Assembly: GCA_027491415.1 (NCBI GenBank) | Contig: JAOZFH010000036.1 | Coordinates: forward strand, 1-43,685 | Direction: 5' to 3' | DNA from: Thermoproteota archaeon | GTDB taxonomy: Archaea > Korarchaeota > Korarchaeia > Korarchaeales > Korarchaeaceae | Length of the DNA stretch: 43,685 bases | Shown: positions 18,016 through 37,298 of the stretch, piece by piece | Position numbering within the stretch: the stretch's first letter is position 1 | Layout: every line of letters begins with the position of its first letter | Translations under genes and position numbers: made by a program | The notes under the pieces: generated by a model | What the model saw: the letters and a program-made list of their open reading frames with translations, nothing else | Told to the model about the DNA's origin: nothing | The model's database searches: none

Positions 18016-18037
18016 GCCGTGGCATGGAGTCTTCCAG

Positions 18038-19618: not shown

Positions 19619-19717
19619 CCAGCCCGCCCACGAGAGGTTCGATTTGGATCAAGCGCGCGAGGCTTTTCATTAATGTAAAACTTATCACTTCCGAGCTTCG
19701 GGTAGGAGCGATTCTCC

Positions 19718-20113
19718 ATGTACGGGGAGGCCTCACTCTCCGAGAGGCTGGAGAGGCTGCTGAGGTTCATGTCCTACGACTGCCCAGGCGTCGAGGCCGC
19801 CGTGCTGGTGAGCTACGATGGACTCATCATGGCCTCTTCTCTGGAAGGAGGCGCCGACGAGGACAGGGTGGCCGCAATGAGCGCGGCCCTCCTCTCGGTG
19901 GCCGAGAAGATTGGGGCCGAGCTAGACAGGGGGGAGTTCGAGACAGCGCTGGTGAGCGGCTCCAAGGGATTCGTGATAGTGAAGCCCGTAAATGGCGACG
20001 CTCTCCTCGTCGTGCTGGCCGGAAAGAACTCCAAGCTGGGGCTGATCAAGTACGAGATGAGCAGGATAGGTAGAATGCTCGCAGAAGAACTGGAGAGGTC
20101 CGGCTACGGCTGA
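19718..20113 (+). CDS. Roadblock/LC7-domain protein
   Basis: The 131-residue protein has the roadblock/LC7 pattern: a first helix, VEAAVLVSYDGLIMASSL, a long helix with VAAMSAALLSVAEKIGAEL, then ETALVSGSKGFVIVKPVNG and DALLVVLAGKNSKLGLIKYEM. Such small proteins regulate Ras-like or other GTPases in archaea and bacteria. It follows the GTPBP1-like gene by 99 bases, in the same direction, but has its own AT-rich promoter (GTAAAACTTATC at 19675-19686). It could act with that GTPase, which is inference from adjacency. Confidence 0.9.
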   Translation: MYGEASLSERLERLLRFMSYDCPGVEAAVLVSYDGLIMASSLEGGADEDRVAAMSAALLSVAEKIGAELDRGEFETALVSGSKGFVIVKPVNGDALLVVLAGKNSKLGLIKYEMSRIGRMLAEELERSGYG

Positions 20114-20150
20114 TGCCCACGCGCGCACCGGTGGAGGGCCCTTCGCCCGA

Positions 20151-21008
20151 TCACGTGAGCTGGAGCGCGACCAGGGCGAGTCCCAGGCTGATCAGCATCC
20201 CGCCCGCTAGTATCCTGGCGCTCAGAGGCTCTCCGCTGACCAGCCTCCCGGCGACCTGAGACACCAGTGGTGTGACCGAGCTGGCCAGAGACGAAGGCCC
20301 AACCCCCAGGACCTCCATGGCCGTGTAGTAGAGCACGAGCCCCACCCCCAGCCCTAGGGTGCCGCTGGCCGCCGAGACCCCTGCCGCCGGTGGGTCCTTG
20401 GACAAAGAGGATCCGCGGAGAGCGTACCAGCCTGAGAAGGCCGCCGCCAGCGCAGCGGCCCTCCAGGCGGCCACCGTGAGAGGGTGAGCGTAGAACAGCG
20501 CCTCCCTGGAGAGGACGGCGCCCAAGGCCCAGGAGGCCGACGTCAGGAGGGCCAGCCCAACGGCCGAGGGTCCTCGGGGGGCCTCTCCGCGGGACGACAG
20601 CACCCATATTCCCGAGACAGACAAGAGGGCTCCAGCCAGGGTGAGCGGCCCGACGGGCTCCCCGAAGAGGACCCCTCCCAGCATTTGGGCCCAGACGACG
20701 TAGGTGAAGGATATCGGTACTACCCTGGAGGGGCCCTCCCTGTTAAGCGCCTCCGTGTAGGCCAGGAGGCCTATTCCCGGACCCACGGCCGCGCTGGCCA
20801 GCGTGAAGGCCGCCGCCCGGGCGCTCATGCCCAGAACCCCCTCGTAGGCGCAGACCGGGATCAGCGCGGCCGCGGCCCCAACGTTTCGCCACGCGTTGAC
20901 GTAGACGGGGTCGGTTCTGCGGACGGCGAACTCGATCATGAGGGGTACGAGCCCCCAGATCACGGCCGCCGCCAGGGCCTCGAGCATGTATGTGATCAGG
21001 CCCGTCAC
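20151..21008 (-). CDS. EamA/DMT-family membrane transporter
   Basis: The 285-residue protein has about ten hydrophobic helices in two EamA repeats: AAVIWGLVPLMIEFAVRRTDP opens the first, LALLTSASWALGAVLSREAL the second, and SLASSVTPLVSQVAGRLVSGE is the usual end of repeat two. The start GTG at 21008 overlaps the HAD stop codon (GTGA); the open frame reaches farther upstream only as antisense of the HAD gene. Substrates of the family include amino acids and metabolites; no prediction is possible here. Confidence 0.87.
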   Translation of the reverse strand: MTGLITYMLEALAAAVIWGLVPLMIEFAVRRTDPVYVNAWRNVGAAAALIPVCAYEGVLGMSARAAAFTLASAAVGPGIGLLAYTEALNREGPSRVVPISFTYVVWAQMLGGVLFGEPVGPLTLAGALLSVSGIWVLSSRGEAPRGPSAVGLALLTSASWALGAVLSREALFYAHPLTVAAWRAAALAAAFSGWYALRGSSLSKDPPAAGVSAASGTLGLGVGLVLYYTAMEVLGVGPSSLASSVTPLVSQVAGRLVSGEPLSARILAGGMLISLGLALVALQLT

Positions 21009-21610
21009 CCCCCGGGCAGCAGGAGCAGAGGAACCTCCCTGAGGCTCCTCACGACGGCGCCCCTGAAGCCCAGGCGTTGAGCCCTCCTCAGGCAGTCTCC
21101 TGGGCCCGCCCTGCAGACCCATATCTCCCTCAGGCCCAGCCCCGCCGACTGGACCTCGACCAGCTGATCCAGGTGGTCGTCGACCAGCGAGAACCTGCCC
21201 CCCATATGCCTCATCAGCACCCTGGCCTGAGAGGCTCTGTCGGGACCGTCCTCCCTAGTTACGAGCCCCCTGAACAGCCTCCTGATTCCGTGGAACTCAA
21301 GCGCGGCCTCGGCCGCCTCCCTAGACTGGAGCGTTATCACGTAGAGGTCGAACTTGCTGACGAGTCCCTCCAGCACCGGCCTGACCTCCGGGAACAGGGT
21401 GGACTTTGGCACAGCCTCCATCTCGGCCTCTTTGACCATGGAGCTGACCAGCCAGTAGTCGTCTGTCCCCCACAGCTCCCTGAGGAGGTCTCTAAAGCTG
21501 TGGACCGGCCTCGAGAGGGTCCTCGACACCCTGATCTTGAGCTCCGGCCACTGGACCGGCAGGGTCAGCAGCGTTCCGTCCATGTCGAAGGCGACGGCTC
21601 CCCTTTCCAT
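21005..21610 (-). CDS. HAD-superfamily phosphatase-like hydrolase
   Basis: The 201-residue protein has HAD motif I FDMDGTLL at residues 8-15 (nucleophile D9 and D11), a helical cap (about 25-75), motif II ITLQSRE (Thr96/Ser99 region) and motif IV LVDDHLDQL. Motif III lysine is not in its usual place (RASQARVLMRHMGG), although K or R residues nearby could substitute. It probably dephosphorylates a small metabolite. The gene begins at ATG 21610 and overlaps the downstream EamA transporter gene by four bases. Confidence 0.87.
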   Translation of the reverse strand: MERGAVAFDMDGTLLTLPVQWPELKIRVSRTLSRPVHSFRDLLRELWGTDDYWLVSSMVKEAEMEAVPKSTLFPEVRPVLEGLVSKFDLYVITLQSREAAEAALEFHGIRRLFRGLVTREDGPDRASQARVLMRHMGGRFSLVDDHLDQLVEVQSAGLGLREIWVCRAGPGDCLRRAQRLGFRGAVVRSLREVPLLLLPGG

Positions 21611-21670
21611 GTCTCCGCACCCAGCCGGGCGCGCCTGGCTATAACCGTGCTGCGCCGGAGATCGGCGAGC

Positions 21671-22459
21671 TTAGAACACGGAGAGAATCCTCCCTCCGTC
21701 CACAGGGATCATGGCGCCCGTCACGTAGCTGGCCCTCTCGCTGGCCAGGAAGGCCACGACCCACGCGACCTCTTCAGGGGATGCCGCCCTCCTCATGGGC
21801 ACGCCGGAGGTCATCCTGCGAATTTCCTCCTCCACAGTCACCCCTTCCCTTCGGGCCCTCGCCTCGGCGAGCTGTCGGACCCTGTCTGTGAGGGTTATCC
21901 CGGGCATGACCCCGTTGACGAGCACGTTGTGTGGGGCGAGCTCTAGCGCCAGAGTCTTCAACAGCCCGGCCAAGGAGATCCTGGCGACGTTGGAGATGGC
22001 TATATCCGGAATTGGCTGCTTTATGGCCACGGACGTTACGTAGATGATCCTTCCCCACCTCCTCTCGATCATCCGCGGCGCGAGCCTCTTGGTTAGCCTG
22101 ACGGCGCTCATTAGGAGGAGCTCGAACGCGTGGTACCAGTCCTCCTCAGAGGTCTCAAAGAACTTGACGGGCCTGGGACCTCCGGTGTTGAAGACGAACA
22201 CGTCTGCCCCTCCTATCTCCTCCACAAAGTCTGCCAAGGATTCCACGTCCTCCCTCGACGTGAGGTCCGCCGCCTTCCACAGGACTTCGGACCCTGTCGT
22301 CGCCGAGATCTCCCGTGCCGTCCTCCTCAGAGCCTCCTCGCTTCTAGAAGATATGATGACCCTGGCGCCCTCCCTGGCCAGGGCTTCCGCACAGGCGCGG
22401 CCTATTCCCCTGCTGGACGCCGTCACCAGCGCCAGCTTGCCCCTGAGACCCAGGTCCAC
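21671..22459 (-). CDS. Short-chain dehydrogenase/reductase lacking the usual Tyr-x3-Lys
   Basis: The 262-residue protein is a Rossmann-fold SDR: TASSRGIGRACAEALAREG is the NAD(P) loop, AADLT and FNTGG (in place of NNAG) follow, and the C-terminus has PGITLTDRVR and YVTGAMIPVDGG. The catalytic Tyr-x3-Lys is absent: after the serine region (VTSVAIKQPIPD) the sequence reads IAISNVARISLAGLLKTLALEL. Some SDR subgroups share this S-N-x2-R form, so it may use another mechanism or be non-catalytic. Start GTG 22459 lies 28 bases from a TATA-like GGTTTAATGG on the minus strand. An upstream in-frame ATG at 22486 falls inside that box. Confidence 0.88.
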   Translation of the reverse strand: MDLGLRGKLALVTASSRGIGRACAEALAREGARVIISSRSEEALRRTAREISATTGSEVLWKAADLTSREDVESLADFVEEIGGADVFVFNTGGPRPVKFFETSEEDWYHAFELLLMSAVRLTKRLAPRMIERRWGRIIYVTSVAIKQPIPDIAISNVARISLAGLLKTLALELAPHNVLVNGVMPGITLTDRVRQLAEARARREGVTVEEEIRRMTSGVPMRRAASPEEVAWVVAFLASERASYVTGAMIPVDGGRILSVF

Positions 22460-22481
22460 AGCCCCAAATCGCGGGGGAAAA

Positions 22482-22491
22482 CCCATTAAAC
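22482..22491. promoter_or_regulatory. Shared TATA-like box between the divergent SDR and CDF genes
   Basis: CCCATTAAAC (GTTTAATGGG on the other strand) is the only AT-rich element in the 59 bases between the two starts. It is about 28 bases from the SDR GTG and about 32 bases from the CDF ATG, so one box could direct both leaderless transcripts. Confidence 0.45.
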
Positions 22492-22518
22492 CTGCCGTCG
22501 CTCTGTCGCTCGGAGCGA

Positions 22519-23874
22519 ATGTCAACCCGCGCTGAGAGTGCCGCGGCGGCATCGATAGCGGTTTCAGTTGCCACAGTGGCCGTGAAGGCGTTCGTTCAAC
22601 TGGTCACCGGGAGCGTAATGGTTGCAGCGGAGGTCGTCGACTCCCTAGGCGACGTGGCCACGTCGTCGGTCAGTCTCTTGGCAGTAAGGCTCTCTAGGAG
22701 GCCGCCCGACGCGGACCACCCCTACGGACACGCCAAGTACGACAGCCTGCTGGGACTCCTCACCTCGGCCCTCCTCTTCGAGGCCGAGGCCTACGTGCTG
22801 TTCAGGAGCGCCAGGTCCCTCCTCATCGGTTACGCAGCGCCCCGCGCGCCCGCTGTGGCTCTGTGGGCCCTAGTCGGCACCAGCGTCGTCAACGTCTTCA
22901 GGTCAGCCGCCCTCTGGGCCGTCGGCAGGGGCGAGGAGAGCAGGGTGCTCCAGTCGGAGGCCCTGAACTATGGCTGGGACGCCGGCAGGACTCTTGTGGT
23001 CGCTGGGGTCCTCCTGATATCCAGCAGGGTTGCGCCGTGGCTGGACCCCGCCTCGGCGATCGTGGTCTCGCTAACCGTCATGCCGTCGACGCTGAGGGTC
23101 GCCTACTGGTCGGCCACCGATCTGCTGGACAGGGTCGACCCGGGGCTCGTCGAGTCGATTCGGGAGGTCCTCTCGTCCGCGCCCGGCGTGAGGTGGGTCG
23201 AGAGGGTGAGGGCCCGGAGGGTCGGACGACTCGTGCTGGTCGACGCGGTGGTGGGCGTAGACCCGGAGCTCACCACCGAACAGGCTTCTCGGGTGATGAT
23301 GGAGGCCCATTGGGCCGTTGAGAGGATCGTCAACAGCCCTTGCGACGTGACCCTCGCCGTAAGGCCGGCCGGTGAGAGCCTGGCGGTCAAGGCCGCGAGG
23401 ATCGCGAAGTCCGAGGCCGGGGTCATAGGCGCCCACTCCATAGAGCTTTACGGACCGGGCAGGGACAGGCTTACCCTCCACCTGGTGATAGACGGGAGTC
23501 TGAGGCTGGGTGAGGCTGACGAGATCGCCCGGAGGGTCGAGAGGAAGATCGCCAAGGAGCTGTCGCTCCGACAGGTCGTGGCGCACATAGATCACTTCGT
23601 CCAGCGGCCTCGGCCTGACCCCGACCTCGAGGCCGTCAGGCGCGCCGTCGAATCTGTCCCCTCCGTGAAGTGGGCCAGGGTGATGAGCGTCAGGTGCGCG
23701 GACGGAGGACTCAGGCTAGAGGTCACCGTGGGGGCCGACCCATTCATGAGCCTGGCCGAGGCCAACAGGCTCGCCCACGAGGTGCAGGCTGCCCTCGCCG
23801 AGGTCGCCCCGGATGCCGTCGCCGTGGTTAGGGTGACCACAGTCGACCCGGGGGAGCGATCGACGGTAGGGTGA
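22519..23874 (+). CDS. Cation diffusion facilitator with an unusually long, repeated cytosolic part
   Basis: The 451-residue protein begins with a CDF membrane domain of about six helices. TM2 has D41 and D45 (VVDSLGD), the loop has HPYGHAKYD (67-75), which matches the second metal site of YiiP, and TM5 has N150 and D154 (NYGWD), where zinc transporters have His and Asp. The cytosolic part is much longer than usual: three consecutive ferredoxin-like segments (about 208-280, 285-360 and 367-440), each starting with a helix such as VESIREVLSSAPGV, AARIAKSEAGVIGA or EAVRRAVESVPSV. Metal specificity (Mn, Fe, Zn or Co) cannot be assigned. Start ATG 22519, probably leaderless. Confidence 0.9.
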   Translation: MSTRAESAAAASIAVSVATVAVKAFVQLVTGSVMVAAEVVDSLGDVATSSVSLLAVRLSRRPPDADHPYGHAKYDSLLGLLTSALLFEAEAYVLFRSARSLLIGYAAPRAPAVALWALVGTSVVNVFRSAALWAVGRGEESRVLQSEALNYGWDAGRTLVVAGVLLISSRVAPWLDPASAIVVSLTVMPSTLRVAYWSATDLLDRVDPGLVESIREVLSSAPGVRWVERVRARRVGRLVLVDAVVGVDPELTTEQASRVMMEAHWAVERIVNSPCDVTLAVRPAGESLAVKAARIAKSEAGVIGAHSIELYGPGRDRLTLHLVIDGSLRLGEADEIARRVERKIAKELSLRQVVAHIDHFVQRPRPDPDLEAVRRAVESVPSVKWARVMSVRCADGGLRLEVTVGADPFMSLAEANRLAHEVQAALAEVAPDAVAVVRVTTVDPGERSTVG

Positions 23875-23890
23875 GCCCGCAGCCCACTGA

Positions 23891-23899
23891 GTATTTAGC
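23891..23899 (+). promoter_or_regulatory. Probable TATA box of the GNAT-ABC fusion gene
   Basis: GTATTTAGC is centred 25 bases upstream of the GTG at 23920 with no ribosome site, fitting a leaderless gene. Confidence 0.45.
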
Positions 23900-23919
23900 A
23901 TTCGGGCCCCCGTAACCCC

Positions 23920-25842
23920 GTGCCGTCGAGGTCCAAGCTGAGGGGCCGCGTGGTCGGCTCAGAGATTCCCCGCTTCAGGAGCAGGTGGTTCGGGATCCTC
24001 CAGGTCGAGGTCGACGGCTCGGAGGTCTCCCTCCTCATGTCCGGGACGGTGGCCCAGTGGTTTGACACAGGCGAGCCGGTCCTGCTGGAGGTCAGGGATG
24101 GGCCACTGAGGGACGGCTCGAGGCTCGGGTTCGACGACTACTCTCTCTGGAGGGTCACCGTGGAGGGGGCCGTGCAGGCGTGGCCAGTCTTTTCCAAGGA
24201 CTACGAGTCCCAGAGGGTGAGCCCGGTGACGGGGGAGCCCATCTACACCTACAGGATCAGGGCGAGGGAGGCCGCCTACGAGAGGGACTTCGAGGCCGTC
24301 GCGGAGCTGGAGCAGTATCACTACGCCTCCGAGAAGGAGCTCGTCGCCCTGTGGAGGTGCGACGTCTGCGGCGAGATAATAAAGGCCAACACGAAGCCCA
24401 CGTGCCCGAACTGCGGCACCGACGAGCGCGTCCACATCCTGGAGATCAAGGGATCGACCCCGGCCTCGAGGTTTCTGGTCTTGGAGCTCGTCGAGAGGGA
24501 GGAGTACGAGCCCCAGTATGTGGCCTACGTGAGGATCGACCCTCCGGTGCCGAGGATGCACCGCAGGCTCCCGGACGGCTCGATTGTGAGGGACATCAGG
24601 GAGAGGGTGTTCCCGGAGGACTGGTTCCACCCGGTCTACAACCCCGAGGAACTCCTGAGGGAGAGGCTGGCCGAGCTCGGGAGGAGGTTCGGCAGGGAGG
24701 TCGGGCTGAGGAGGCTCTGGGAAGAAATCAAGTGGGAGGCGCTGAGGCGGACGAACGCCGCCGCGTCCAGGGTGGCGAGGGTCGTCGTTCACCCGGACTA
24801 CAGGTCCGACGGGCTGGGGCAGCTCTCGGTGAGGGCGGCCCTCGAGTGGATCCGGGAGCGTAGGATCCCCGAGATGAGGAGGAGGAAGCACCTGGTCGAG
24901 ACCATCGCCCAGATGGCCAGGTACAACCCCTTCTTCGAGAAGGTGGGCTTCAGGTACGTCTGGGACACCGCCTCGGGCAGGCCGGTCCTCTACTACCCGC
25001 TGACGGACGATGGCAGGGAGGCGCTGGAGAGGTTCCTGCGAACCGACCCTGTGGCCAGGGAGCACGGCGGTAGGCTTTGCGTCCCGACCTACGGGAAGGT
25101 CGAGCGGCTCGAGGGTCCGATAAGGCTCGAGGACGTCTCCATGGTGTTCGAGAGCGAGTTGAACGTCGATGGCCTCCCTGATAGGCTCAGGGAGCTCTTG
25201 GAAGCCTTTGGGGTGAGGAGCAGGGTCATACAGAGGCAGGTCCTGAGGAACGTGAACCTGGAGATCTCGCCAGGCGAGGTGATCGCTGTGGTTGGGGCCT
25301 CGGGGGCTGGCAAGACCACGCTGCTTAGGCTAATCTGGGGGGCCTGCAAGGGGCTGAAGGGGAGGAAGTTCGAGCCAACTGCGGGGAGGGTCCTGGCCCC
25401 GGAGAACGCCAGGGTGGGCGTGCTGATCCCTGGGGAGAGGGAGCCGCGGTTTGGGGACGAGTCCATCTTAGAGCACGTCTACGCCAAGCTAGGCGACGAG
25501 AGAACGGCGGTGGAGGTGCTGAACAGATGCGGCCTCTCCGACGCTGTCCTCTATAGGGCCAGGTACGCCGAGCTGTCCACGGGCCAGAGGGAGAGAGCGA
25601 GGCTGGCCAGCGTGCTCGCCGAGAGGCCCAACGTGCTGCTGGTTGACGAGTTCGCCGCCCACTTAGATGCTCTGACGGCGATGAGGATTGCCAGGGCCTT
25701 CGGGAAGCTGGCCAGAGAGGCCGGAATCGCGGCCCTGGTGGTGACGCACAGGGCCGAGGTGATAAGGGCGCTGGACCCCGACAGGGTCCTGTTTGTCGGA
25801 TACGGGGCCGTCTCGGAATCTATGGAGTGGAGGACAAGGTGA
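23920..25842 (+). CDS. Fusion of a zinc ribbon, GNAT-like domain and ABC ATPase
   Basis: The 640-residue protein joins several modules. Residues 1-140 form a domain I do not recognise. C147, C150, C162 and C165 (CDVC and CPNC) make a zinc ribbon. Residues about 275-350 resemble a GNAT acetyltransferase (RVARVVVHPDYRSDGLGQLS, then YNPFFEKVGFRYV). From about 395 there is a soluble ABC ATPase: GASGAGKTT (459-467), LSTGQRERA (552-560) and VLLVDEF (572-578). No membrane segments exist, so it is not a transporter. Similar fusions occur in other archaea without a known role; modification of RNA, protein or ribosomes is conceivable. Start GTG 23920. Confidence 0.85.
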   Translation: MPSRSKLRGRVVGSEIPRFRSRWFGILQVEVDGSEVSLLMSGTVAQWFDTGEPVLLEVRDGPLRDGSRLGFDDYSLWRVTVEGAVQAWPVFSKDYESQRVSPVTGEPIYTYRIRAREAAYERDFEAVAELEQYHYASEKELVALWRCDVCGEIIKANTKPTCPNCGTDERVHILEIKGSTPASRFLVLELVEREEYEPQYVAYVRIDPPVPRMHRRLPDGSIVRDIRERVFPEDWFHPVYNPEELLRERLAELGRRFGREVGLRRLWEEIKWEALRRTNAAASRVARVVVHPDYRSDGLGQLSVRAALEWIRERRIPEMRRRKHLVETIAQMARYNPFFEKVGFRYVWDTASGRPVLYYPLTDDGREALERFLRTDPVAREHGGRLCVPTYGKVERLEGPIRLEDVSMVFESELNVDGLPDRLRELLEAFGVRSRVIQRQVLRNVNLEISPGEVIAVVGASGAGKTTLLRLIWGACKGLKGRKFEPTAGRVLAPENARVGVLIPGEREPRFGDESILEHVYAKLGDERTAVEVLNRCGLSDAVLYRARYAELSTGQRERARLASVLAERPNVLLVDEFAAHLDALTAMRIARAFGKLAREAGIAALVVTHRAEVIRALDPDRVLFVGYGAVSESMEWRTR

Positions 25843-26278
25843 GCCTGCCGGCCGGCCTGAACCTAAGATCGGCGCCGGACTTGCGTATGGCGGGGTCAAT
25901 CTTTGATCGAGTGGCCCGGGATGAGCCCCTACTGGGGGGATAGTGGGCCAAGCAGAGGCGCTCACGACTGAGCCGCAACCCCACGCCCGTGGTCAGCACG
26001 ACTCTAGGAAGGGTGCAGGTCGGCGTGACGGGCTGCGGGATCGGGTGGAGTGGAGCGGATTCGCCCGGGTGGCCATTAGACGACCCTGAGACCGCCTCCC
26101 GGCTGGCGGACCACGCCACGAGTCACCCGCCCAGACACGACGCCCTCCTGAGGTAACTCCCAACGCCTCGCGCTCCTGTTCCTCAGCCATTCTAGACTCA
26201 CCCGTGTTCAGGTTATCAGGATCTCCCACCTTCTGGTCCCTGGGGGCCCCAGGTCCTCCCGCCGATACGGGCAATTTG
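25843..26278. other. Intergenic region of 436 bases containing repeat copy 1
   Basis: No intact gene is visible. The last part of the region (25958-26170) is a decayed sequence that recurs at 27670-27884. Short open frames on both strands here look random and do not match each other as proteins between the two copies, except a C-terminal stretch described with the repeats. Confidence 0.6.
25958..26170 (+). repeat. Diverged direct repeat, copy 1
   Basis: This 213-base segment matches 27670-27884 in order and orientation. Shared blocks are GCGCTCAC at the left end, TGGTCAGC, TCTAG, GAGACCGCC, AGACACGACG, CTCCTGAGGTA and CCCAA at the right end. Near the end both copies can be read in one frame as E-T-A, L-A, A-T, H-P, R-H-D and L-L-R followed by a stop, so they probably descend from the 3' end of one gene. 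Copy 1 has stops in that frame farther left and is more decayed. Confidence 0.65.
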
Positions 26279-26713
26279 TCACCTATTCGTCAGAATTATG
26301 GTAAAAAGGGACCAGGCTAAGGACGTCACGGCCAGCGCCGCCGCAACGGTAGCTGCGCTCCCCATCAGCTCACTAACTCGGACCCTCCCTTCCCCCCTGG
26401 CGGACTTGAGGATGATGGAGATTACCACACTGATGATCGCCAGCTCGAGGAGACCCCCCAGCATCAGAAAGGTCCATAGGCCTAGCTCAGCTCCGAGGAT
26501 CCTGAACACGACGGGCGAGGTGGCTCCTATCAACAGGTGGGCTAGGATCAGAAGGCCGACCACCTTGGCCGCAAACAGCATGCGGTCTCCCTTATCCTCT
26601 TTTCCTAGGAATGGGGCTAGGTCAGCGCTCAGAGCCGCCAACGACCCGTATATCCCTACTAGGGAGGCCGCCGCAAGGACATAAAGGAGGACATCGGTTA
26701 GTAAGGTGGGCAA
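26279..26713 (-). CDS. Four-helix integral membrane protein, unrecognised
   Basis: I do not recognise this 144-residue protein. It has four hydrophobic segments (about residues 7-30, 47-72, 78-102 and 117-141) with a charged loop DLAPFLGKEDKGDR after the first and SARGEGRVRVSEL before the last. The start ATG at 26713 is preceded by GGAGGGAGA (minus strand), a fair ribosome site, 8-9 bases away. It lies 15 bases downstream of the secreted protein gene, so the two may form a small operon. Both sit between the two direct repeats. Confidence 0.7.
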   Translation of the reverse strand: MPTLLTDVLLYVLAAASLVGIYGSLAALSADLAPFLGKEDKGDRMLFAAKVVGLLILAHLLIGATSPVVFRILGAELGLWTFLMLGGLLELAIISVVISIILKSARGEGRVRVSELMGSAATVAAALAVTSLAWSLFTIILTNR

Positions 26714-26728
26714 GACGGATCTCCCTCC

Positions 26729-27298
26729 TTAGTGACAGCTTCCCTGCCCATTTGCGTATATCTCAGCTGTTATGATTAAGTAGCCCCACAGCCCGGAGAT
26801 TAGGTTATAGTATAATCCAGAGCCCCTAATCCTCGCCCTCCAGTAGGTTTGAGATGTAATCCTAGAGGAATGGTATACGGGGATCCATCCCAGGTATCCC
26901 TCTGAGTGCGTCCAATGATCGATGTAAAGGATCCTCTGCCCGTCATACTCCCAATACACGTACAGATCGAGCCTATATACCGGCTTGTGAAGAGCATTGT
27001 ATGCTACTCTGGCGCAGTGAAGGGTTCTCCCGTAAACAACTCTTGGGGAGAGGTCAGTAGATGCAAGCAGCGCACCACGTCTCGTGGCCTCAAGAGGGGT
27101 GCTAAGTTCACAGAAGATTATAATATAGGCGGGCTTGAGAAGATCTTCGGCTCTGTCCGGGTAGAACTGGATATATCTACCCGGTCTCTGTGAAGCATTT
27201 GGAAGCCCAAATGCGCCGGTACAAGGGAATACGATTAAGAAAACTAGAACAACGGGCATCAGCGACTGGAGGGTCCTGATAGAGTCCCCTCCATTCAA
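26729..27298 (-). CDS. Secreted or membrane-anchored protein, unrecognised
   Basis: I do not recognise this protein. With the TTG start at 27298 (ribosome site GAGGGTGAT six bases upstream) it has 189 residues and opens with a signal-like segment: SLMPVVLVFLIVFPCTGAFG. The same frame is open to a TTG at 27355 and an ATG at 27325, either of which would lengthen the N-terminus. The mature part is rich in Tyr, Trp, Ile and Arg (YRLDLYVYWEYDGQRILYID, GLYYNLISGLWGYLIITAEI) and probably folds outside the cell as a beta-rich domain. Its base composition is clearly lower in GC than its neighbours, with many ATA and AGA codons, which suggests recent arrival. Confidence 0.68.
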   Translation of the reverse strand: MNGGDSIRTLQSLMPVVLVFLIVFPCTGAFGLPNASQRPGRYIQFYPDRAEDLLKPAYIIIFCELSTPLEATRRGALLASTDLSPRVVYGRTLHCARVAYNALHKPVYRLDLYVYWEYDGQRILYIDHWTHSEGYLGWIPVYHSSRITSQTYWRARIRGSGLYYNLISGLWGYLIITAEIYANGQGSCH

Positions 27299-27990
27299 GT
27301 TTATATCACCCTCTGCAAAATTCATATAGCTTTTCTTAAAAGGTCTTTCACTCAAAATTTCAGTCCCGGGCCTCTTCCTGAAATTTTATCCCGAGCAGGT
27401 CCTTGCTGCCGCATCTGGCTCGCCACCAGCCGCCTACCCACATAACACCTCTGACCGGGTTGATGTTGGTTGATTCCCCGGGTCGGTGGTCGTGGGTTCT
27501 TAACCGAGGATTAGGGGGCTAGGGTCCAAAGAGCCCGAGTATCCGAGAGAATTTTCACTTTTTAAAAAAGTACTTTTATTTTTAATGGCATTTGAGTCAT
27601 TAACTTTACTTCCAATCTAATAATCTAACCCTCCAGGCTTGGCATTGATCGGCAACCCCACTCAGCGTAGCGCTCACATGTGACCTGCAGCCCTATGCCG
27701 ATGGTCAGCTCCTTCTAGTCTTGGAGATGCGATTCGACGGGGGAAGGCTTGTTGTGAGATGGGCGTGGAACGGGTACGCCGACGCTGCTCAGCCAGCGGA
27801 CCTGGAGACCGCCTTCGTCCTTGCGAGCCAGGCCACCAAGCATCCCCTGAGACACGACGTGCTCCTGAGGTAGGCCCCAATCTCTCTTTTTCCCCGTCGG
27901 TCAAGCCGAGCGTCGAACCGAAGTTGTTGCCTCACGACTCGTCTCAGGCCCCTACCTCTCTGCAGGAGTTTCCTCTGGGCGCTACAGGTC
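27299..27990. other. AT-rich intergenic region of about 690 bases with repeat copy 2
   Basis: This is the least GC-rich part of the window, especially 27540-27630, where ACTTTTTAAAAAAGT forms a near-perfect dyad at 27558-27572 followed by CTTTTATTTTTAATGG. A promoter or terminator of a lost gene would look like this. The right part (27670-27884) is repeat copy 2. I find no tRNA or conserved RNA structure that I can support. Confidence 0.55.
27670..27884 (+). repeat. Diverged direct repeat, copy 2 (remnant of a gene 3' end)
   Basis: This 215-base copy matches 25958-26170. It keeps one open frame from about 27640 to the TAG at 27871-27873; readable parts include DLQPYADGQLLLVLEM, GGRLVVRWAWNGYADA and DLETAFVLASQATKHP. 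It therefore looks like the last 70-75 codons of a protein-coding gene whose upstream part is gone, as no start or continued similarity is visible to the left. I do not recognise the family. Confidence 0.6.
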
Positions 27991-28344
27991 TCATTGGCCC
28001 TGTAGCTTCGTCCGGATCCTCTGCAGGGCCTCCTCGACCGAGACACCAGCGAGCTCTACGGTCTCTATCCCCAGCTCCTCCAGCGCCGTCATGGCGTTCG
28101 GTCCGAAGGCGCCAGCGACCGCTACCCTGACGCCCTCCTCCAGCAGCCTCTGGACCGCCTTGATCCCCGCGCCGCTCCTGGCCGAGGCGCCGGGGTTCTC
28201 CACCACCCTCACTCCCCCGATTTCCCCGTCTTCCAGCTCGACTATGGCCAGGTATGGCGCCCTCCCAAACCTGGAACTTACCCTTGAGTCCAGACCAGAG
28301 TCGTCCTCCACAGCCAGACCCACCTTCACCGTTCCCACGAGCAT
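27991..28344 (-). CDS. NifX/NafY-like (dinitrogenase iron-molybdenum cofactor family) protein
   Basis: The 117-residue protein shows the small RNase H-like fold of the dinitrogenase Fe-Mo cofactor family (MTH1175 type): VGLAVEDDSGLDSRVSSRFGRAPYLAIVELEDGEIG, VENPGASARSGAGIKAVQRLLEEGV, and AGAFGPNAMTALEELGIETV. Members carry iron-sulfur or molybdenum-containing clusters. The genome region has no nitrogenase genes, so a general cofactor-carrier role is more likely. It is the last gene of the leftward Fe-S operon, nine bases after the second MinD-type ATPase. Confidence 0.9.
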   Translation of the reverse strand: MLVGTVKVGLAVEDDSGLDSRVSSRFGRAPYLAIVELEDGEIGGVRVVENPGASARSGAGIKAVQRLLEEGVRVAVAGAFGPNAMTALEELGIETVELAGVSVEEALQRIRTKLQGQ

Positions 28345-28353
28345 CCCCCCTCT

Positions 28354-29334
28354 TCAATCCCCCGGAAGCCCCTCCGGCCTTATTATGATGGGCCGGTACG
28401 GCTCGGGCTCTCTCGGCCTGAACCTCGTGAACCACGACTGCCAGTCGTCGACTATTGCCATGACCCTCTCCGCGACTTCCATCAGGGCCTTCGACGCGGG
28501 GCTGTCCGGAAAGGCCTCGACCACCGGCTTCATCATGGCCATGCTCTTGGGAATGGCATCGTCATAGGGGATCCGGCCCAGCAGGTCAATGTTCTTCCTC
28601 CGGGCGAACGCCTCCATCTCCTCCGTCACCCCTGGGTTGACGTCGTGCTTGTTGATGACCAGCCCGGCGGGCTGCATGAAGTGCCTCGTGAGCCTGAAGA
28701 CTCTCTTCAGCGCTGCGAAGCTCGCCGGGGTTGGCTCGGCCACCAGTATGGCAGCGTTGGCCCCGGCCAGGCTCGAGACCACCTGGCACCCTATCCCCGC
28801 CGCGGAGTCCACCACCACCAGGGAGTCCTGCGAGGCAAGCTCCTTGGCCATTGACTTCTCTTCGGTCACCAGCTTGCCGGAGTTCGGCCTCCCCGGGTTA
28901 AGCCTCGCGGAGACGAGCGGGAAGCCGTAGCTAGTGGTCGTCTTCCTGAGCCTCCCCGACTCGGCGGAGAGCAGCCTTATGGCCCCCCTCTCCGGGCACA
29001 CGAGGGAGCACGTCAGGCACCCCTCGCAGACGACCTGGTTCACCGCAAACCTCCCCCCCTCGTCAACGTGGATGGCCTCGTAGGGGCAGACCTCCCGGCA
29101 CCTGCCGCACCTCGTGCAGAGCGACTGGACTATCTCGGCGACCTTGCTCTCGACGTAGGGCTTTTCCCACTCCCACTCCCTGACCCCGAATATCAGGTGC
29201 AGGTTTGGCGCGTCCGCGTCGGCGTCGACGGCGATCACGCTCTTTCCGGATCTCGCCGCGGCCAGGACTATCGTGGCGGAGACGGTGGACTTCCCGACCC
29301 CGCCCTTCCCGCTGGCTATCGCCATCTCGATCAC
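28354..29334 (-). CDS. MinD/Mrp-type ATPase with inserted 2x[4Fe-4S] ferredoxin domain (second copy)
   Basis: The 326-residue protein has the deviant Walker A GKGGVGKST at the N-terminus, an inserted ferredoxin-like domain with LCTRCGRCREVCPYEAI and VVCEGCLTCSLVCPERGAI, then the ATPase continues with VVVDSAAGIGCQVVSSL. A C-terminal tail of about 40 residues rich in Arg and Pro follows. Such proteins (COG1149) are thought to build or transfer Fe-S or other metal clusters. I chose the GTG at 29334, which overlaps the stop of the first copy (GTGA); a longer open frame upstream only overlaps that gene. An ATG three codons later is an alternative. Confidence 0.92.
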   Translation of the reverse strand: MIEMAIASGKGGVGKSTVSATIVLAAARSGKSVIAVDADADAPNLHLIFGVREWEWEKPYVESKVAEIVQSLCTRCGRCREVCPYEAIHVDEGGRFAVNQVVCEGCLTCSLVCPERGAIRLLSAESGRLRKTTTSYGFPLVSARLNPGRPNSGKLVTEEKSMAKELASQDSLVVVDSAAGIGCQVVSSLAGANAAILVAEPTPASFAALKRVFRLTRHFMQPAGLVINKHDVNPGVTEEMEAFARRKNIDLLGRIPYDDAIPKSMAMMKPVVEAFPDSPASKALMEVAERVMAIVDDWQSWFTRFRPREPEPYRPIIIRPEGLPGD

Positions 29335-30200
29335 GAAACCACCCCCCTCACCATCTCTGCCAGCCGCCTGAACTCCTCCGCCTCCGGAGAGTCGGGTCTG
29401 TGGAGCACGATCGGGACGCCCCGGATGTATGACTCCACCACCCTCCTGGAGTAGGGTATCCGGGCGACTATCTCGGCCCCCCTCTCCCTCACCAGCCTGA
29501 CGTGGTCGTCTTCCGGTCCTATTCCGGCCCTGTTTATGACGACCCATGCTTCTATCCCCAGGGTCTGGGCCATCTCCAGAATCAGGTCGAGGTCGTGCAG
29601 GCCCAGGGGGGTGGGCTCCGTGACGGCTATGAGGAGCCTGGATCCGTCCACAGCCGCAGCGACGGAGTTGCTTGTCCCCGCGGAGGTGTCCACCAGGTGC
29701 AGGTCCGCCTCGACGGAGAGCGCCCTGCGCCTGGCGGCCAGGACGACGGGCGGAGTGTGCTCCTCTCCCTCCCTCAGGGATCCGGTGACCAGCGTGATCT
29801 TGGACTCGCCGAGCTCGAGTTCCGACAGGTAGGTGTACCCGATCGTCCTCTTCCCCTCCACGATGGCGTCCACCGGACACGCGAAGTAGCAGGACCTGCA
29901 CCCGCTGCAGAGCCTGGGTATCACGTAGGGGAGGCCATCAGGCGAGATCAGCATGGCTCCGGTGTCGCACACCCTCCCGCAGGCCCCGCACTTGATGCAC
30001 TTCTGGTAGTTCACGAAGGGCAGCATGATGTTGACGGGCCGCTCGCCCGCGAGTTCGGCCCCCAAGAGGATGTGGTCGTTGGGGTTCTCCACGTCTAGAT
30101 CAGCCAGCACAAGCCTGAGGTCCCGCGAGAGGAGCGCGGCCAGGTTAACGGCCACCGTCGACTTTCCCGTACCCCCCTTCCCGCCCGACACCGAGACCAT
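29331..30200 (-). CDS. MinD/Mrp-type ATPase with inserted 2x[4Fe-4S] ferredoxin domain (first copy)
   Basis: The 289-residue protein is a paralogue of the next one: Walker A GKGGTGKST, ferredoxin insert with KCIKCGACGRVCDTGAM and LCSGCRSCYFACPVDAI, then LHLVDTSAGTSNSVAAAV and TEPTPLGLHDLDLIL. The two gene products probably act together, as paired ATPases of this group usually do. The ATG at 30200 follows a TTG at 30203; either could start it. The gene lies 5 bases after the Panacea-like gene and overlaps the next by four bases. Confidence 0.92.
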   Translation of the reverse strand: MVSVSGGKGGTGKSTVAVNLAALLSRDLRLVLADLDVENPNDHILLGAELAGERPVNIMLPFVNYQKCIKCGACGRVCDTGAMLISPDGLPYVIPRLCSGCRSCYFACPVDAIVEGKRTIGYTYLSELELGESKITLVTGSLREGEEHTPPVVLAARRRALSVEADLHLVDTSAGTSNSVAAAVDGSRLLIAVTEPTPLGLHDLDLILEMAQTLGIEAWVVINRAGIGPEDDHVRLVRERGAEIVARIPYSRRVVESYIRGVPIVLHRPDSPEAEEFRRLAEMVRGVVS

Positions 30201-30205
30201 CAACT

Positions 30206-30622
30206 CTACCGCCCCCTGCCAGTCAGCTCGACGTATCTCTCGTCTCGGGTTACCATCCGGTTCAGCTCCCGGTCGCTCAGGTCGTAGACTTCTCGGATAA
30301 CCTCATCAAGGACCTCGCGCTCTTGGGGCGTGAGACTAGGCTTGGCGCACGTGTACTCTAGGCACCTCTCCTCCTCTCTGCGCCTCAAACACCCAGATCG
30401 CTCCAGGCGCTCCAGGACTCCTTGCAGGCCCTCGACGTAAAACCCGTAGGGCTCCGCCACGTAGCTCAGCCCCTCCGTGAGCCTCCCCAGTCTGACCTCC
30501 TCGGCCCTCCAATCTGCCAGCAGGAGGATTCGGGATACCCTGAAGGGGTGGGTGCAGCCGAGCCTCGCAAGGATGTAGGCGACCAACCTCGAATCTCTGT
30601 CCGGCTCCCCCAACAGGATCAC
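30206..30622 (-). CDS. Small protein with weak Panacea (DUF4065)-like features
   Basis: The 138-residue protein starts at GTG 30622, overlapping the stop of the MIP18-like gene (GTGA). It reads RVSRILLLADWRAEEVRLG, then LTEGLSYVAEPYGFYVEGLQGVLERLE, then PSLTPQEREVLDEVIREVY. That order (a KLLYLAD-like helix, a T-G-x-x-Y-V-x-x-x-x-G stretch, and a late helix with vldevi) resembles Panacea/DUF4065 antitoxin domains, but the match is weak. Three or four Cys residues (C33 and C88-C101 region) are notable in this Fe-S setting. Its position inside a tight Fe-S assembly operon argues for a role there rather than in toxin neutralisation. The assignment is tentative. Confidence 0.72.
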   Translation of the reverse strand: MILLGEPDRDSRLVAYILARLGCTHPFRVSRILLLADWRAEEVRLGRLTEGLSYVAEPYGFYVEGLQGVLERLERSGCLRRREEERCLEYTCAKPSLTPQEREVLDEVIREVYDLSDRELNRMVTRDERYVELTGRGR

Positions 30623-31014
30623 CCCCCCTTGGCCTTGGCCCTCTTGATCCACTCCCCAACCACATCGTATCCGTAGATCTCCCTCAGCCTATCCCTGCCC
30701 TGGGGGGTCACCCTCTCCGGGGTCCAGGGCGGGTCCCACACGAGGTTCACCTTCACCCTCCTGCCGGGACCCACGGCCTCCCTGATGGCGGCCTCGGCCA
30801 TGGCGATTACCATCCCCGCCACCGGGCAGCCGGGGGCCGTCATCGTCATGTCGACCTCCACGTTCCCCTCCTCATCCACGTCGATCCTGTACACGAGCCC
30901 CAGGTCGTAGACATTCACCGGGATCTCCGGGTCGAAGGTGCCCTTCAGGGCCTCGATCACCCTCCGCCTTATCTCTCGACTCTGTTTCTCCCCTCTATCC
31001 GTCAACCCGCCCAT
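30619..31014 (-). CDS. MIP18/PaaD-family (DUF59) iron-sulfur assembly factor, SufT-like
   Basis: The 131-residue protein is a DUF59 domain: VIEALKGTFDPEIPVNVYDLGLVYRID, MTMTAPGCPVAGMVIAMAEAAI with the conserved cysteine in APGCP, and VNLVWDPPWTPERVTPQGRDRL, the family's C-terminal signature. Relatives help insert Fe-S clusters into target proteins. It is the first gene of a leftward five-gene operon with two ferredoxin-bearing ATPases and a cofactor carrier. Start ATG 31014; a TATA-like GGATATAACG (31051-31060, minus strand) lies upstream and gives a short leader. Confidence 0.93.
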   Translation of the reverse strand: MGGLTDRGEKQSREIRRRVIEALKGTFDPEIPVNVYDLGLVYRIDVDEEGNVEVDMTMTAPGCPVAGMVIAMAEAAIREAVGPGRRVKVNLVWDPPWTPERVTPQGRDRLREIYGYDVVGEWIKRAKAKGG

Positions 31015-31178
31015 CCCCCTAGATTTAGGCTCACCTAACTCCGATGAATGACACCGTTATATCCTTTTCTCCAGCCCGCAGGCGCGGCTGGACCGGCCTG
31101 TTTGCCGCGCGCACGCTGAATCCACCCCTAGACTGCCAACCCAAGGTCTCTGAGCACCTGATGGTCACCGCCAAACCG

Positions 31179-31185
31179 TTATATG
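31179..31185 (+). promoter_or_regulatory. Probable TATA box of the ModE-like regulator gene
   Basis: TTATATG is centred 26 bases upstream of the GTG at 31208; no ribosome site is seen, fitting a leaderless gene. Confidence 0.5.
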
Positions 31186-31207
31186 CGATATTCCCGATGG
31201 GGATAGT

Positions 31208-32284
31208 GTGGAGGAGATCCTGAACGAGCTGAGGCCTCGCGTCGCCCTGGTCCTGGAGTATCGCGGCGAGGTGGTTTTGGACGACAGGCTGGCCAAGATA
31301 CTGGAGGAGGTTGAGAGGAGGGGGTCCCTGCTCTCCGCCTGCAAGTCCGTCGGCGCCTCGTACTCTCGAATCTGGGAGAGGATATCGGACCTGGAAAGCC
31401 TGCTTGGCAAGAGGATGCTGGAGGTGAGGAGGGGCGGCCCGGGAGGCGGCGGGGCGAGGCTCACCAGGTTCGGAAAGGCGCTTCTCAGGATCTACGTCGA
31501 GGAGAGGGCCAAGGTGAGGGGAGGCTCAAGGGTTGGCCCCCTGGGCAGGAGCTTGATGACCCCGCCAGACTTCCTCCTGCTGGGGAGCCACGACCCGGCC
31601 CTCGACGTCATACTCTCCGAGGTGAGGGAGTCGGCGCCGGACATCGAGCTCAGGAGGGAGTGGCTTGGATCGGCGGGCGGACTCGCCGCGCTGATGCTCG
31701 AGTACGCGGACGCCGCGGGGACGCACCTCTTGGACCCCGAGACGGGCCGCTACAACGTCCCCTACATTCCCAGATACTGGCTCGAGGACCGCGTCGTGAT
31801 GATCAGGGGGTACCAGAGGGAGATCGGCCTGGTCTTCAGGAGGGGGGAGGAGTACGGCCTCAGGGACATCTTGGCGGGGAGGGCCAAGCTCGTGAACAGA
31901 AACCCCGGGTCTGGGAGCAGGATCCTGCTGGACTACCTGCTCAAGAGGGCGGCGCTCGACGAGGGCGCGGATCCTGCGGAGATCCCCAAGAGGGTTAAAG
32001 GGTATCAGCTGGAGGTCAGGACGCACGTCGGCGTTGCCAGGAAGGTCTCGTCCGGGGATGCCGACGTCGGAGTGGCCATTCGATACGTCGCAGAGCGGTT
32101 CGGGCTTGGATTCAGGAGGCTGGCGTGGGAGTGGTACGACCTCGCCATAAGGAGGGACTCGCTGCGCAAGCCAGCCGCCCAAGAGATCCTCAAGCTGTTC
32201 AGGTCCGGGGAGGTTGGCGAGATCATATCTGCCATGCCGGGCTACAGGCTGACCCCGGACTCTGGCCGTCAGATCTACCCCTGA
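31208..32284 (+). CDS. ModE-type winged-helix regulator fused to a molybdate/tungstate-binding-like domain
   Basis: The 358-residue protein has a ModE-type DNA-binding domain at residues 1-100 (SLLSACKSVGASYSRIWERI, LLGKRMLEVRRGGPGGGGARL, TRFGKALL) and a periplasmic-binding-protein-like domain at about 115-345 (LLGSHDPALDVILSEV, AGTHLLDPETGRYN, VNRNPGSGSRILLDYLL, GDADVGVAIRYVAERFGL), the COG1910 type. No signal peptide is present, so it is cytoplasmic and can sense an oxyanion or another small ligand. Regulators of this kind control molybdate or tungstate uptake or molybdoenzymes. Likely targets in the window are TupABC or the molybdenum hydroxylase operon, which is inference. Confidence 0.9.
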   Translation: MEEILNELRPRVALVLEYRGEVVLDDRLAKILEEVERRGSLLSACKSVGASYSRIWERISDLESLLGKRMLEVRRGGPGGGGARLTRFGKALLRIYVEERAKVRGGSRVGPLGRSLMTPPDFLLLGSHDPALDVILSEVRESAPDIELRREWLGSAGGLAALMLEYADAAGTHLLDPETGRYNVPYIPRYWLEDRVVMIRGYQREIGLVFRRGEEYGLRDILAGRAKLVNRNPGSGSRILLDYLLKRAALDEGADPAEIPKRVKGYQLEVRTHVGVARKVSSGDADVGVAIRYVAERFGLGFRRLAWEWYDLAIRRDSLRKPAAQEILKLFRSGEVGEIISAMPGYRLTPDSGRQIYP

Positions 32285-32328
32285 GTAATTCAAGCGAATT
32301 AGAGGTATATCACACGTAATGTTGACAG

Positions 32329-32336
32329 TTTAAATA
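32329..32336 (+). promoter_or_regulatory. Probable TATA box of the PIN-like gene
   Basis: TTTAAATA is the best AT-rich box, about 41 bases before the TTG at 32374, leaving a leader that contains GAGG at 32360-32363. Confidence 0.4.
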
Positions 32337-32373
32337 GAGGGCTTACATTAGGTGTAGTAGAGGTTAGGTCAGC

Positions 32374-32877
32374 TTGAGCGTGGTCTGGGGAGGGTCCCTG
32401 TCGGCCCTTTTTCTGGGTGGGGCGGCCGCAGCAGGGGCGGTCGGGTCCACGGGATCCAGGGTAGTCGTGGAGCCGGAGATCCTCCGACTCTTCAGCGACC
32501 TCGGCTACCCCTGGCTCGTGGGGAGGACCTACGACGAGATCCTGATGGACCGCGAGCTCTGCGCGGCCGCGGCGGATGAGGTTCCCTGGGGACTTTACAT
32601 AACTGGGGAGCTCCTCCGGACGGCGCCTTCTCCGGGGGCGGCCGTCGAGCTTGCCGAAGAGCTGTTGGGCCTGGGCCTCTCCGTCGGGGAGGCTGCGACG
32701 ATAGCCGCGGCCGTAGCGACGGCCCACGACATGGTCTTACTGGTGAACGACCGCGCTAGGGCGGTGGCCAGGGAGTTCGGGCTCACCCCAGCCTCTCCCC
32801 TGCAGGTGATAGTCGACGCCTTCAGGAAGGAACTGATCACCCCAGAGGAGTTCGTCAGGCTGGCCAGCGAGCTATAG
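32374..32877 (+). CDS. PIN-like domain protein, divergent
   Basis: The 167-residue protein resembles PIN-domain nucleases of the DUF3368 type in its C-terminal half: LSVGEAATIAAAVATAHDMV, LLVNDRARAVAREFGL, then PLQVIVDAFRKELITPEEF. In the N-terminal half the expected first catalytic aspartate (as in VVDTSAL) is not present; the segment reads VVWGGSLSALFLGG. It may thus be inactive or only a relative. The start is TTG at 32374 (GTG at 32380 is possible). It is followed 19 bases later by a small membrane protein, suggesting co-transcription. No partner antitoxin is recognised. Confidence 0.7.
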   Translation: MSVVWGGSLSALFLGGAAAAGAVGSTGSRVVVEPEILRLFSDLGYPWLVGRTYDEILMDRELCAAAADEVPWGLYITGELLRTAPSPGAAVELAEELLGLGLSVGEAATIAAAVATAHDMVLLVNDRARAVAREFGLTPASPLQVIVDAFRKELITPEEFVRLASEL

Positions 32878-32896
32878 AGATGGGAGAAGGATTGAG

Positions 32897-33208
32897 ATGG
32901 AGGAGTCCATGAGTTTGGAGTACGGTGTGGCTCCCCGGGAGGTCGGACCGAGGTCCCCCGAGGAGCTGAAGTCGGCCCTCGAGAGGGCTTGGGAGGAGGT
33001 AGAGAGGGTCAGGAGGGCCCGGATGCGGAGGTACGCCATAGCGGCGGGCTTCACCTCTGCAGGGATCTTTCTGCTCTTCCTATCCCTCATGATGCTCTTG
33101 GAGAGGCTGGCGATCTGGCCGCTGGGCGTAGCGTCCACGTACGTGGCCCTGACGTCCTTAGGGGCGCTCTCCTTCGGGTACGGGTTCTACCGGATGGGGG
33201 CTCACTGA
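32897..33208 (+). CDS. Small membrane protein with two helices, unrecognised
   Basis: I do not recognise this 103-residue protein. An N-terminal charged stretch with a likely coiled coil (PEELKSALERAWEEVERVRR) precedes two hydrophobic helices (about residues 47-68 and 74-98). The start ATG at 32897 has GGAGAAGGA upstream at 32883-32891. It sits two bases before the glycosyltransferase gene, so it is probably translated with it and may assist that membrane enzyme. Confidence 0.75.
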   Translation: MEESMSLEYGVAPREVGPRSPEELKSALERAWEEVERVRRARMRRYAIAAGFTSAGIFLLFLSLMMLLERLAIWPLGVASTYVALTSLGALSFGYGFYRMGAH

Positions 33209-33209
33209 A

Positions 33210-34292
33210 ATGGGGAGGGGGGATGACCCCCTTCGCCTCTCCGTCACCGTGGTGATCCCGGCGTACAACGAGGAGGAGGGGGTTAGGGCCTGCTTGGAGA
33301 GCGTTCTACGGCAGACGGTGGCTCCCGATCAGGTTATCGTAGTGGACGACGGCTCGACGGACGGGACCCCCCGGATACTCGAGGAGTTCCGCGGCCGGGT
33401 CGATGTGGTGACCCTGGTCGAGAACTCAGGCAACAAGGCGCTGGCCCTCAGGGCGGCCCTCCCCCACATCAAAGGGGACGTGGTGGTCTACACCGACGCG
33501 GACTCCGAGCTCGACCCCCGTGCCGTTGAGCTCCTGCTCGCGCACTTTCTCGACCCCCGGGTGGGGGCTGTCTCGGGAATTGTCGTCTCCCGCAGGCACA
33601 ACCTCCTGACCTCGGTCAGGGAGCTCCAGTACATAATGGGGCAGGAGGTATACAAGAGGGGGATGGGGGTCCTCGGGACGATCATGGTCATCCCCGGCTG
33701 CGTCGGGGCCGTGAGGAGGGATCTGTTCCACCCCAGCCCAGACACGATCACCGAGGACATGGACCAGACCCTCACGGTCGTGAAGGCCGGCCGCAGGGTC
33801 GTCTACGAGCCGAGGGCGGTGGCGGTGACCAGCGACCCGCCCAACCTACGGTCCTACGTCAGGCAGAGCTGGAGGTGGTTCTCGGGGTACTTCCAGAACG
33901 TGAGAAAGCACTTCTCCTCTCTGCCGAGGAGAATGAAGTTCCAGATGGCCTATCTCTCGATCGAGAACATGATGGGCACCGTCACGCCCTTCCTCGCGGT
34001 GTACCTCGCGGGCGCCCCCAGGAGGGAATCCCTCGCGCTGGCGTTCGTGTTGGGAGAAGTCGTCTCGTGGCTTGCGGTGGCCCTCTACGGGGCCCTCCGT
34101 CTCGGGAGGATCGACTTGATCCCCGCGGCCCTGTTCTCCCCGGTAGTCAGGGTCATCGACGGGTTCCTGTGGACGGGGACAGCTGTGAGCGAGCTCCTCC
34201 TGAGCAGGGGGGACGTCACCTGGAGGAGGGCAGACAGATTCCGCTTTGCCGCAAAGAAGGAGGAACTCCGAGGTCCGAGCCCAGTACTGTGA
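33210..34292 (+). CDS. Membrane-bound family 2 glycosyltransferase
   Basis: The 360-residue protein has a GT-A domain opening with VTVVIPAYNEEEGV, VVDDGSTDGTP, VYTDADSELDP (metal site), EDMDQTL (catalytic acid) and QSWRWFSGYF (the Q-x-x-R-W-type acceptor motif). Three hydrophobic segments follow (about 245-270, 275-300 and 305-330). This layout is that of processive or polysaccharide-type GT2 enzymes, acting at the cytoplasmic face of the membrane on a sugar-nucleotide donor. Its acceptor is unknown; it may extend surface glycans. Start ATG 33210, tightly following the small membrane protein. Confidence 0.92.
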   Translation: MGRGDDPLRLSVTVVIPAYNEEEGVRACLESVLRQTVAPDQVIVVDDGSTDGTPRILEEFRGRVDVVTLVENSGNKALALRAALPHIKGDVVVYTDADSELDPRAVELLLAHFLDPRVGAVSGIVVSRRHNLLTSVRELQYIMGQEVYKRGMGVLGTIMVIPGCVGAVRRDLFHPSPDTITEDMDQTLTVVKAGRRVVYEPRAVAVTSDPPNLRSYVRQSWRWFSGYFQNVRKHFSSLPRRMKFQMAYLSIENMMGTVTPFLAVYLAGAPRRESLALAFVLGEVVSWLAVALYGALRLGRIDLIPAALFSPVVRVIDGFLWTGTAVSELLLSRGDVTWRRADRFRFAAKKEELRGPSPVL

Positions 34293-34325
34293 GAGAGCGT
34301 GAAAAAAGGCGCGGCGGAGGAGGGA

Positions 34326-36444: not shown

Positions 36445-36447
36445 CCA

Positions 36448-36484
36448 AATAACTTCGGTTTGTTAGAACTTATCCGAAGTTATT
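36448..36484. promoter_or_regulatory. Perfect 11-bp inverted repeat, probable operator
   Basis: AATAACTTCGG (36448-36458) and CCGAAGTTATT (36474-36484) are exact reverse complements, 15 bases apart. Between them the minus strand carries GATAAGTTC, about 27-30 bases before the GTG/ATG start of the Yip1-like gene, which is where a TATA box belongs. A dimeric regulator binding both arms would block that promoter. The right arm adjoins an AT-rich stretch leading to the divergent gene. The likeliest binder is the regulator at the end of the operon. Confidence 0.7.
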
Positions 36485-36510
36485 CGATTATAAACCTTTC
36501 CTAGGGCAAG

Positions 36511-36520
36511 GCATATATCG
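36511..36520 (+). promoter_or_regulatory. Probable TATA box of the PLD-like gene
   Basis: GCATATATCG is centred about 29 bases before the ATG at 36544, fitting a leaderless transcript. A second AT-rich box, GATTATAAAC at 36487-36496, lies farther up. Confidence 0.45.
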
Positions 36521-36543
36521 GGAAGGCCGCAGGGGGCGGGCAA

Positions 36544-37266: not shown

Positions 37267-37298
37267 CCGATGTAGGACCCCCTCCCCACAACGCGCCT

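What the first reader, a model, noticed from the sequence alone, without database searches (positions are those of the whole stretch)
25958..27884. AT-rich two-gene island bracketed by decayed direct repeats
Segments 25958-26170 and 27670-27884 match in order and orientation over about 210 bases, and the DNA between them includes the least GC-rich part of the window with two unfamiliar genes. The repeats look like two copies of the 3' end of one gene. Insertion next to a gene end with duplication, or recombination between copies, would produce this.
Basis: partly seen in the sequence, partly recalled or inferred. Interest (0 to 1): 0.66.

Follow-up and report, generated by a model that had tools for sequence, protein, structure and literature searches.

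The report
Recombined-in two-gene island, archaeal genome
In this archaeal genome a block of about 1.9 kb, carrying a foreign gene end, a broken copy of a small gene and two genes of unknown kind, replaced a short native stretch and left the native small gene, cut at its start, on the far side; this is ordinary gene exchange that looks like a flanking duplication.

Summary
The repeat is real: 25948-26163 and 27658-27880 align over 210 ungapped columns at 70% identity, far above shuffled DNA. The island between them is AT-rich (GC 48-58% in its genes; about 65% around) and holds two orphan genes. The only same-genus genome held lacks the island and has one copy of the repeat unit, directly downstream of the same ABC/GNAT gene. 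There the unit is a 102-codon ORF overlapping that gene's stop codon. The window's right copy is the native one (about 93% identical) with its 5' part missing. The left copy is 73-74% identical to both and frameshifted. The block begins before the repeat: identity to the relative falls from about 95% to about 75% near 25720, inside the ABC/GNAT gene, at a highly significant breakpoint. So 25720-27647 looks like one imported block (donor gene end, donor copy of the small gene, island) that replaced about 200 bp, with homology on the left and probably an illegitimate join on the right: the footprint of homology-facilitated illegitimate recombination. The copies are then probably diverged homologues brought together, not a duplication made by insertion. 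Two other blocks of about 78% identity lie in the window. Ordinary, low interest; function of the orphan pair unknown.

The parts
23920..25842 (+). ABC/GNAT gene (640 aa: rubredoxin-like zinc ribbon, GNAT-like region, ABC ATPase), the left anchor; conserved in other archaeal phyla
   Evidence: Pfam; orthologues in G001, G006, G033, G035, G037
25720..27647 (.). proposed imported block: donor 3' end of the ABC/GNAT gene, spacer, donor copy of the small gene, island
   Evidence: breakpoint at codon 600, chi2 73.6 against at most 17.2 in 300 permutations; collinearity with G001 resumes at 27647
25925..26156 (+). copy 1 of the small gene: diverged (73-74%) and frameshifted
26279..26713 (-). island gene, 144 aa, about four hydrophobic segments, orphan
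26729..27298 (-). island gene, 208-codon ORF from 27355, more likely start TTG at 27298 (189 aa) with a signal-like N-terminus; orphan
   Evidence: the choice of start is inferred from the sequence
27356..27646 (.). AT-rich (GC 0.48) DNA without a recognised gene or RNA
27647..27873 (+). copy 2 of the small gene: native, 5' part missing, frame open to the stop
   Evidence: about 93% identical to the G001 gene
27991..28344 (-). Nitro_FeMo-Co family gene, the conserved right flank
   Evidence: Pfam PF02579; collinear in G001

Best explanation
A piece of DNA from a related archaeon about 20-25% diverged in sequence recombined into this genome. Its left end paired with the conserved body of the ABC/GNAT gene and crossed over near 25720. 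Its right end was joined just inside the 5' part of the native small gene, near 27647, without long homology. Some 200 bp of native DNA (the gene's own 3' end, the spacer and the start of the small gene) were lost; the donor's gene end, its copy of the small gene and its two neighbouring genes came in. The outcome is a donor copy on the left and the truncated native copy on the right, which read as direct repeats around an island. Shown: single copy and no island in the relative, the breakpoint, the relatedness of the copies, the frameshift and the truncation. Inferred: the donor, the direction (gain here rather than loss there) and the illegitimate nature of the right junction. The island genes probably encode a secreted and a membrane protein and may act as a pair; this is not shown.
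For: G001 (same genus) has ABC/GNAT gene, small gene and Nitro_FeMo-Co gene adjacent, with no island and one copy. Sharp rise of divergence inside the ABC/GNAT gene: synonymous codon differences 62/602 before, 17/32 after (Fisher p 1e-8), breakpoint at codon 600 (chi2 73.6, permutation maximum 17.2). Copy 1 is diverged from copy 2 to a similar degree (third positions 11/25) as the gene end is from G001 (19/32); copy 2 is nearly identical to G001. The native DNA between breakpoint and small gene is missing. The outgroup G006 agrees more often with G001 than with the window (10 to 5 sites, 3 to 0 amino acids). Two more blocks of about 78% identity with sharp edges lie in the same window. Island genes are of foreign composition and absent from the 28 other genomes of the phylum (the 144-aa gene).
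Against: No donor genome was found, so neither the donor's order nor microhomology at the right junction can be seen. The first 25 bases of copy 2 are less like G001, which would also fit a homologous right crossover with a donor that has a second copy. Polarity rests on few sites. The left copy is decayed, so its divergence may partly be decay.
Confidence: 0.68

Rival explanations
1. Old tandem duplication of the small gene with the two island genes placed between the copies; G001 lost copy 1 and the island by deletion.
For: Two homologous copies at one place, one in G001. Loss of the left copy and island between repeats is a common event.
Against: Does not explain the sudden divergence of the ABC/GNAT gene end, which begins well before the repeat. 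Copy 2 matches G001 from its very start, not a hybrid of the two copies. No other genome of the phylum has two copies.
Confidence: 0.15
2. Two homologous crossovers, one in the ABC/GNAT gene and one within the small gene, with a donor that already had two copies of the small gene around these genes.
For: The first 25 bases of copy 2 are less like G001 than the rest, as if the crossover lay inside the gene.
Against: Needs a donor that already has the arrangement, which only moves the question; 25 bases are too few to tell.
Confidence: 0.12
3. Chimeric assembly of two strains or species in a metagenome.
For: The genome is a draft in 63 contigs, and a run of about 48 identical bases to G001 lies just left of the breakpoint.
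Against: A second false join would be needed at 27647, where no long shared word is seen; the two copies share exact words of only about 10-11 bases.
Confidence: 0.05

Closest known systems
Homology-facilitated illegitimate recombination (described in PMC3240628)
   Same: Homologous exchange on one side, join without long homology on the other, foreign DNA gained (here about 1.9 kb) and native DNA lost (here about 200 bp)
   Different: Known from bacteria in experiments; here inferred from sequence in an archaeon; microhomology of 3-10 bp at the right junction cannot be checked without the donor; the loss is smaller than the gain
Effector-immunity module displacement leaving the old immunity gene downstream (Vibrio T6SS, PMC5361080)
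   Same: Conserved 5' part of a gene, replaced 3' end, incoming downstream partner gene, old partner gene left further downstream
   Different: No sign that the ABC/GNAT gene is an effector or the small gene an immunity gene; the incoming partner copy is broken; the added genes face the other way
Integrative element at a gene 3' end with att direct repeats
   Same: Insert between direct repeats of a gene end
   Different: No integrase, repeats only about 70% identical, no tRNA, divergence reaches beyond the repeat

Membership tests
Homology-facilitated illegitimate recombination product | one junction in homologous sequence | tested here: met
   breakpoint inside the ABC/GNAT gene, which is collinear with and about 95% identical to G001 up to that point
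Homology-facilitated illegitimate recombination product | insertion coupled with loss of native DNA | tested here: met
   about 200 bp of the G001 order (gene end, spacer, start of the small gene) replaced by about 1.9 kb
Homology-facilitated illegitimate recombination product | other junction without long homology, often 3-10 bp microhomology | tested here: inconclusive
   similarity to G001 begins at 27647 but the donor sequence is unknown
Integrase-driven element at a gene end | near-identical att repeats and an integrase gene | tested here: not met
   repeats 70% identical; no recombinase among the ORFs of the island
Transposon or miniature transposon | terminal inverted repeats, target duplication, further copies | tested here: not met
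   no long terminal inverted repeats, no other copy in the genome, no transposase
Effector-immunity displacement array | match to effector or immunity families | tested here: not met
   no Pfam, NCBIfam, PHROGs or PADLOC match for the island genes, and no Pfam, NCBIfam or significant PHROGs match for the small gene

The most novel reading that the evidence does not exclude
The two orphan genes are a new, rapidly exchanged archaeal pair of a secreted protein and a membrane protein (for example an antagonistic protein with its immunity protein), and the 3' end of the ABC/GNAT gene with its small partner gene is an exchange hot spot in this genus.
Probability: 0.08. Interest if true: 0.45.

Novelty: new member of a known kind. 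Interest (0 to 1): 0.2.

Why it matters
It is a worked example in which 'decayed direct repeats' around an island are best read as donor and recipient versions of one gene, recognisable because the divergence starts outside the repeat. It would add a likely archaeal case of gene gain by one-sided homology and points to frequent exchange with a lineage 20-25% diverged in sequence. Otherwise it is ordinary genome plasticity.

Tried and rejected
RNA feature: no credible Rfam match (one chance hit, E 0.64) and no tRNA. Mobile element: no recombinase, no long inverted ends, no second copy. The 23-nt identical word in contig C28 lies in an ABC ATPase gene and is taken as chance in a similarly coded motif. 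Weak protein hits of the island genes in G005, G009, G019, G048 and G057 (E 0.01-0.07): the two loci read (L015, L016) showed only unrelated ORFs. Viral, phage, plasmid and genome collections gave no relative of the 208-codon ORF, and viral and phage collections none of the 144-aa protein. The single-sequence model of the secreted protein has mean pLDDT 34, mostly strands, too poor for a fold search. The ABC/GNAT gene is found in other archaeal phyla, but the small gene was found only in this genus.

Full report
OBSERVATION. The direct repeat is real. A local alignment joins 25948-26163 with 27658-27880, 147 of 210 ungapped columns identical (70%), score 117 against at most 54 in 500 shuffles. 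The island between is the lowest-GC stretch of the window, and its two genes have low third-position GC (0.52 and 0.69 against 0.79-0.90 in five other genes). No other copy of the repeat or of the island was found in the genome, apart from a 23-nt match in an ABC ATPase gene.

RELATIVE. The window is a whole contig (C25) of a draft archaeal genome of 1.78 Mb. Of the 28 other species held for its phylum, one is in the same genus (G001). G001 is collinear with the window from 17243 to 25831 and from 27647 to 37792, the end of the stretch fetched, and lacks the island. In G001 the ABC/GNAT gene is followed at once by a 102-codon ORF whose GTG overlaps its stop codon, then by the Nitro_FeMo-Co gene. 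That ORF is the repeat unit. Relatives of it were found only in this genus.

THE TWO COPIES. Copy 2 (27647-27873) is about 93% identical to the G001 gene, but its similarity begins only at about residue 31 of the G001 protein. Copy 1 (about 25925-26156) is 73-74% identical to both in its best part. Its 5' half matches the G001 protein in one frame (ALTTEPQPHARGQ against ALTRDLQPYAGGQ) and its 3' half in another (DPETASRLADHATSHPPRHDALLR against DLETAFVLASQATKHPLRHDVLLR); each match exceeds all of 1000 shuffles. So it carries a net frameshift. Substitutions between the copies are enriched at third positions (2, 7, 11; p 0.04), modest support that the unit is or was coding. This genome therefore seems to hold no intact copy (inference).

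THE BLOCK IS LARGER THAN THE ISLAND BETWEEN THE REPEATS. Against G001 the ABC/GNAT gene has 62 synonymous codon differences in its first 602 codons but 17 in the next 32 (Fisher p 1e-8). The best breakpoint is codon 600, near 25720, with chi2 73.6 against 17.2 at most in 300 permutations. The divergent DNA thus begins inside the upstream gene and runs through copy 1 and the island to 27647, where native sequence resumes. The divergence of copy 1 from copy 2 (11 of 25 third positions) is of the same order as that of the gene end (19 of 32). About 200 bp that G001 has between the breakpoint and the body of the small gene are absent. Two other blocks of about 78% identity, with sharp edges at 18050 and 21000, lie nearby, so replacement by DNA from a lineage at that distance may be frequent here.

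MECHANISM. The simplest account is one import event: homologous crossover in the ABC/GNAT gene on the left, and a join without long homology in the 5' part of the small gene on the right, with loss of the native DNA between. This is the footprint described for homology-facilitated illegitimate recombination (PMC3240628) and proposed for effector displacement in Vibrio, where an old partner gene is left downstream of a new one (PMC5361080). Shown are the anatomy and the breakpoint. The donor, the direction and the nature of the right junction are inferred. Polarity has weak support: at the informative sites the outgroup G006 agrees with G001 ten times and with the window five times, and three to nil in amino acids.

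ISLAND GENES. The 144-aa protein has about four hydrophobic segments. The 208-codon ORF probably starts at TTG 27298, behind a Shine-Dalgarno-like GAGGGTGAT, and then has a signal-like N-terminus (for hydropathy; start inferred from the sequence). They are adjacent on the minus strand. No family, solved structure or relative was found, and the structure model was too poor to use. My best guess is a secreted protein with a membrane partner; this is a guess from layout only.

VERDICT. Ordinary; interest 0.2.

Noticed in passing
window 17243-18050: Block of 64-90% identity to the same-genus genome with a sharp right edge at 18050 (about 96% beyond); it overlaps the end of a HEPN-domain ORF (PF05168, E 4.5e-29). 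Left of 17243 no similarity in the stretch fetched.
   Followed up: partly
window 21000-22550: Second block of about 72-90% identity to the same-genus genome with a sharp left edge at 21000, covering a HAD-like hydrolase gene and a short-chain dehydrogenase gene.
   Followed up: partly
L003 1501-1523 (contig C28 48923-48945): A 23-nt exact match to copy 2 inside the 3' part of an ABC ATPase gene (coding ADLETAF), the only other match in the genome.
   Followed up: partly
window 23920-25842: A 640-aa protein joining a rubredoxin-like zinc ribbon, a GNAT-like region and an ABC ATPase; orthologues at 45-71% identity in several archaeal phyla, yet absent from most genomes of the window's own family.
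   Followed up: partly
window 39501-40000 and 5501-6000: Two further dips in GC (0.556 and 0.552) in the composition profile.
   Followed up: no
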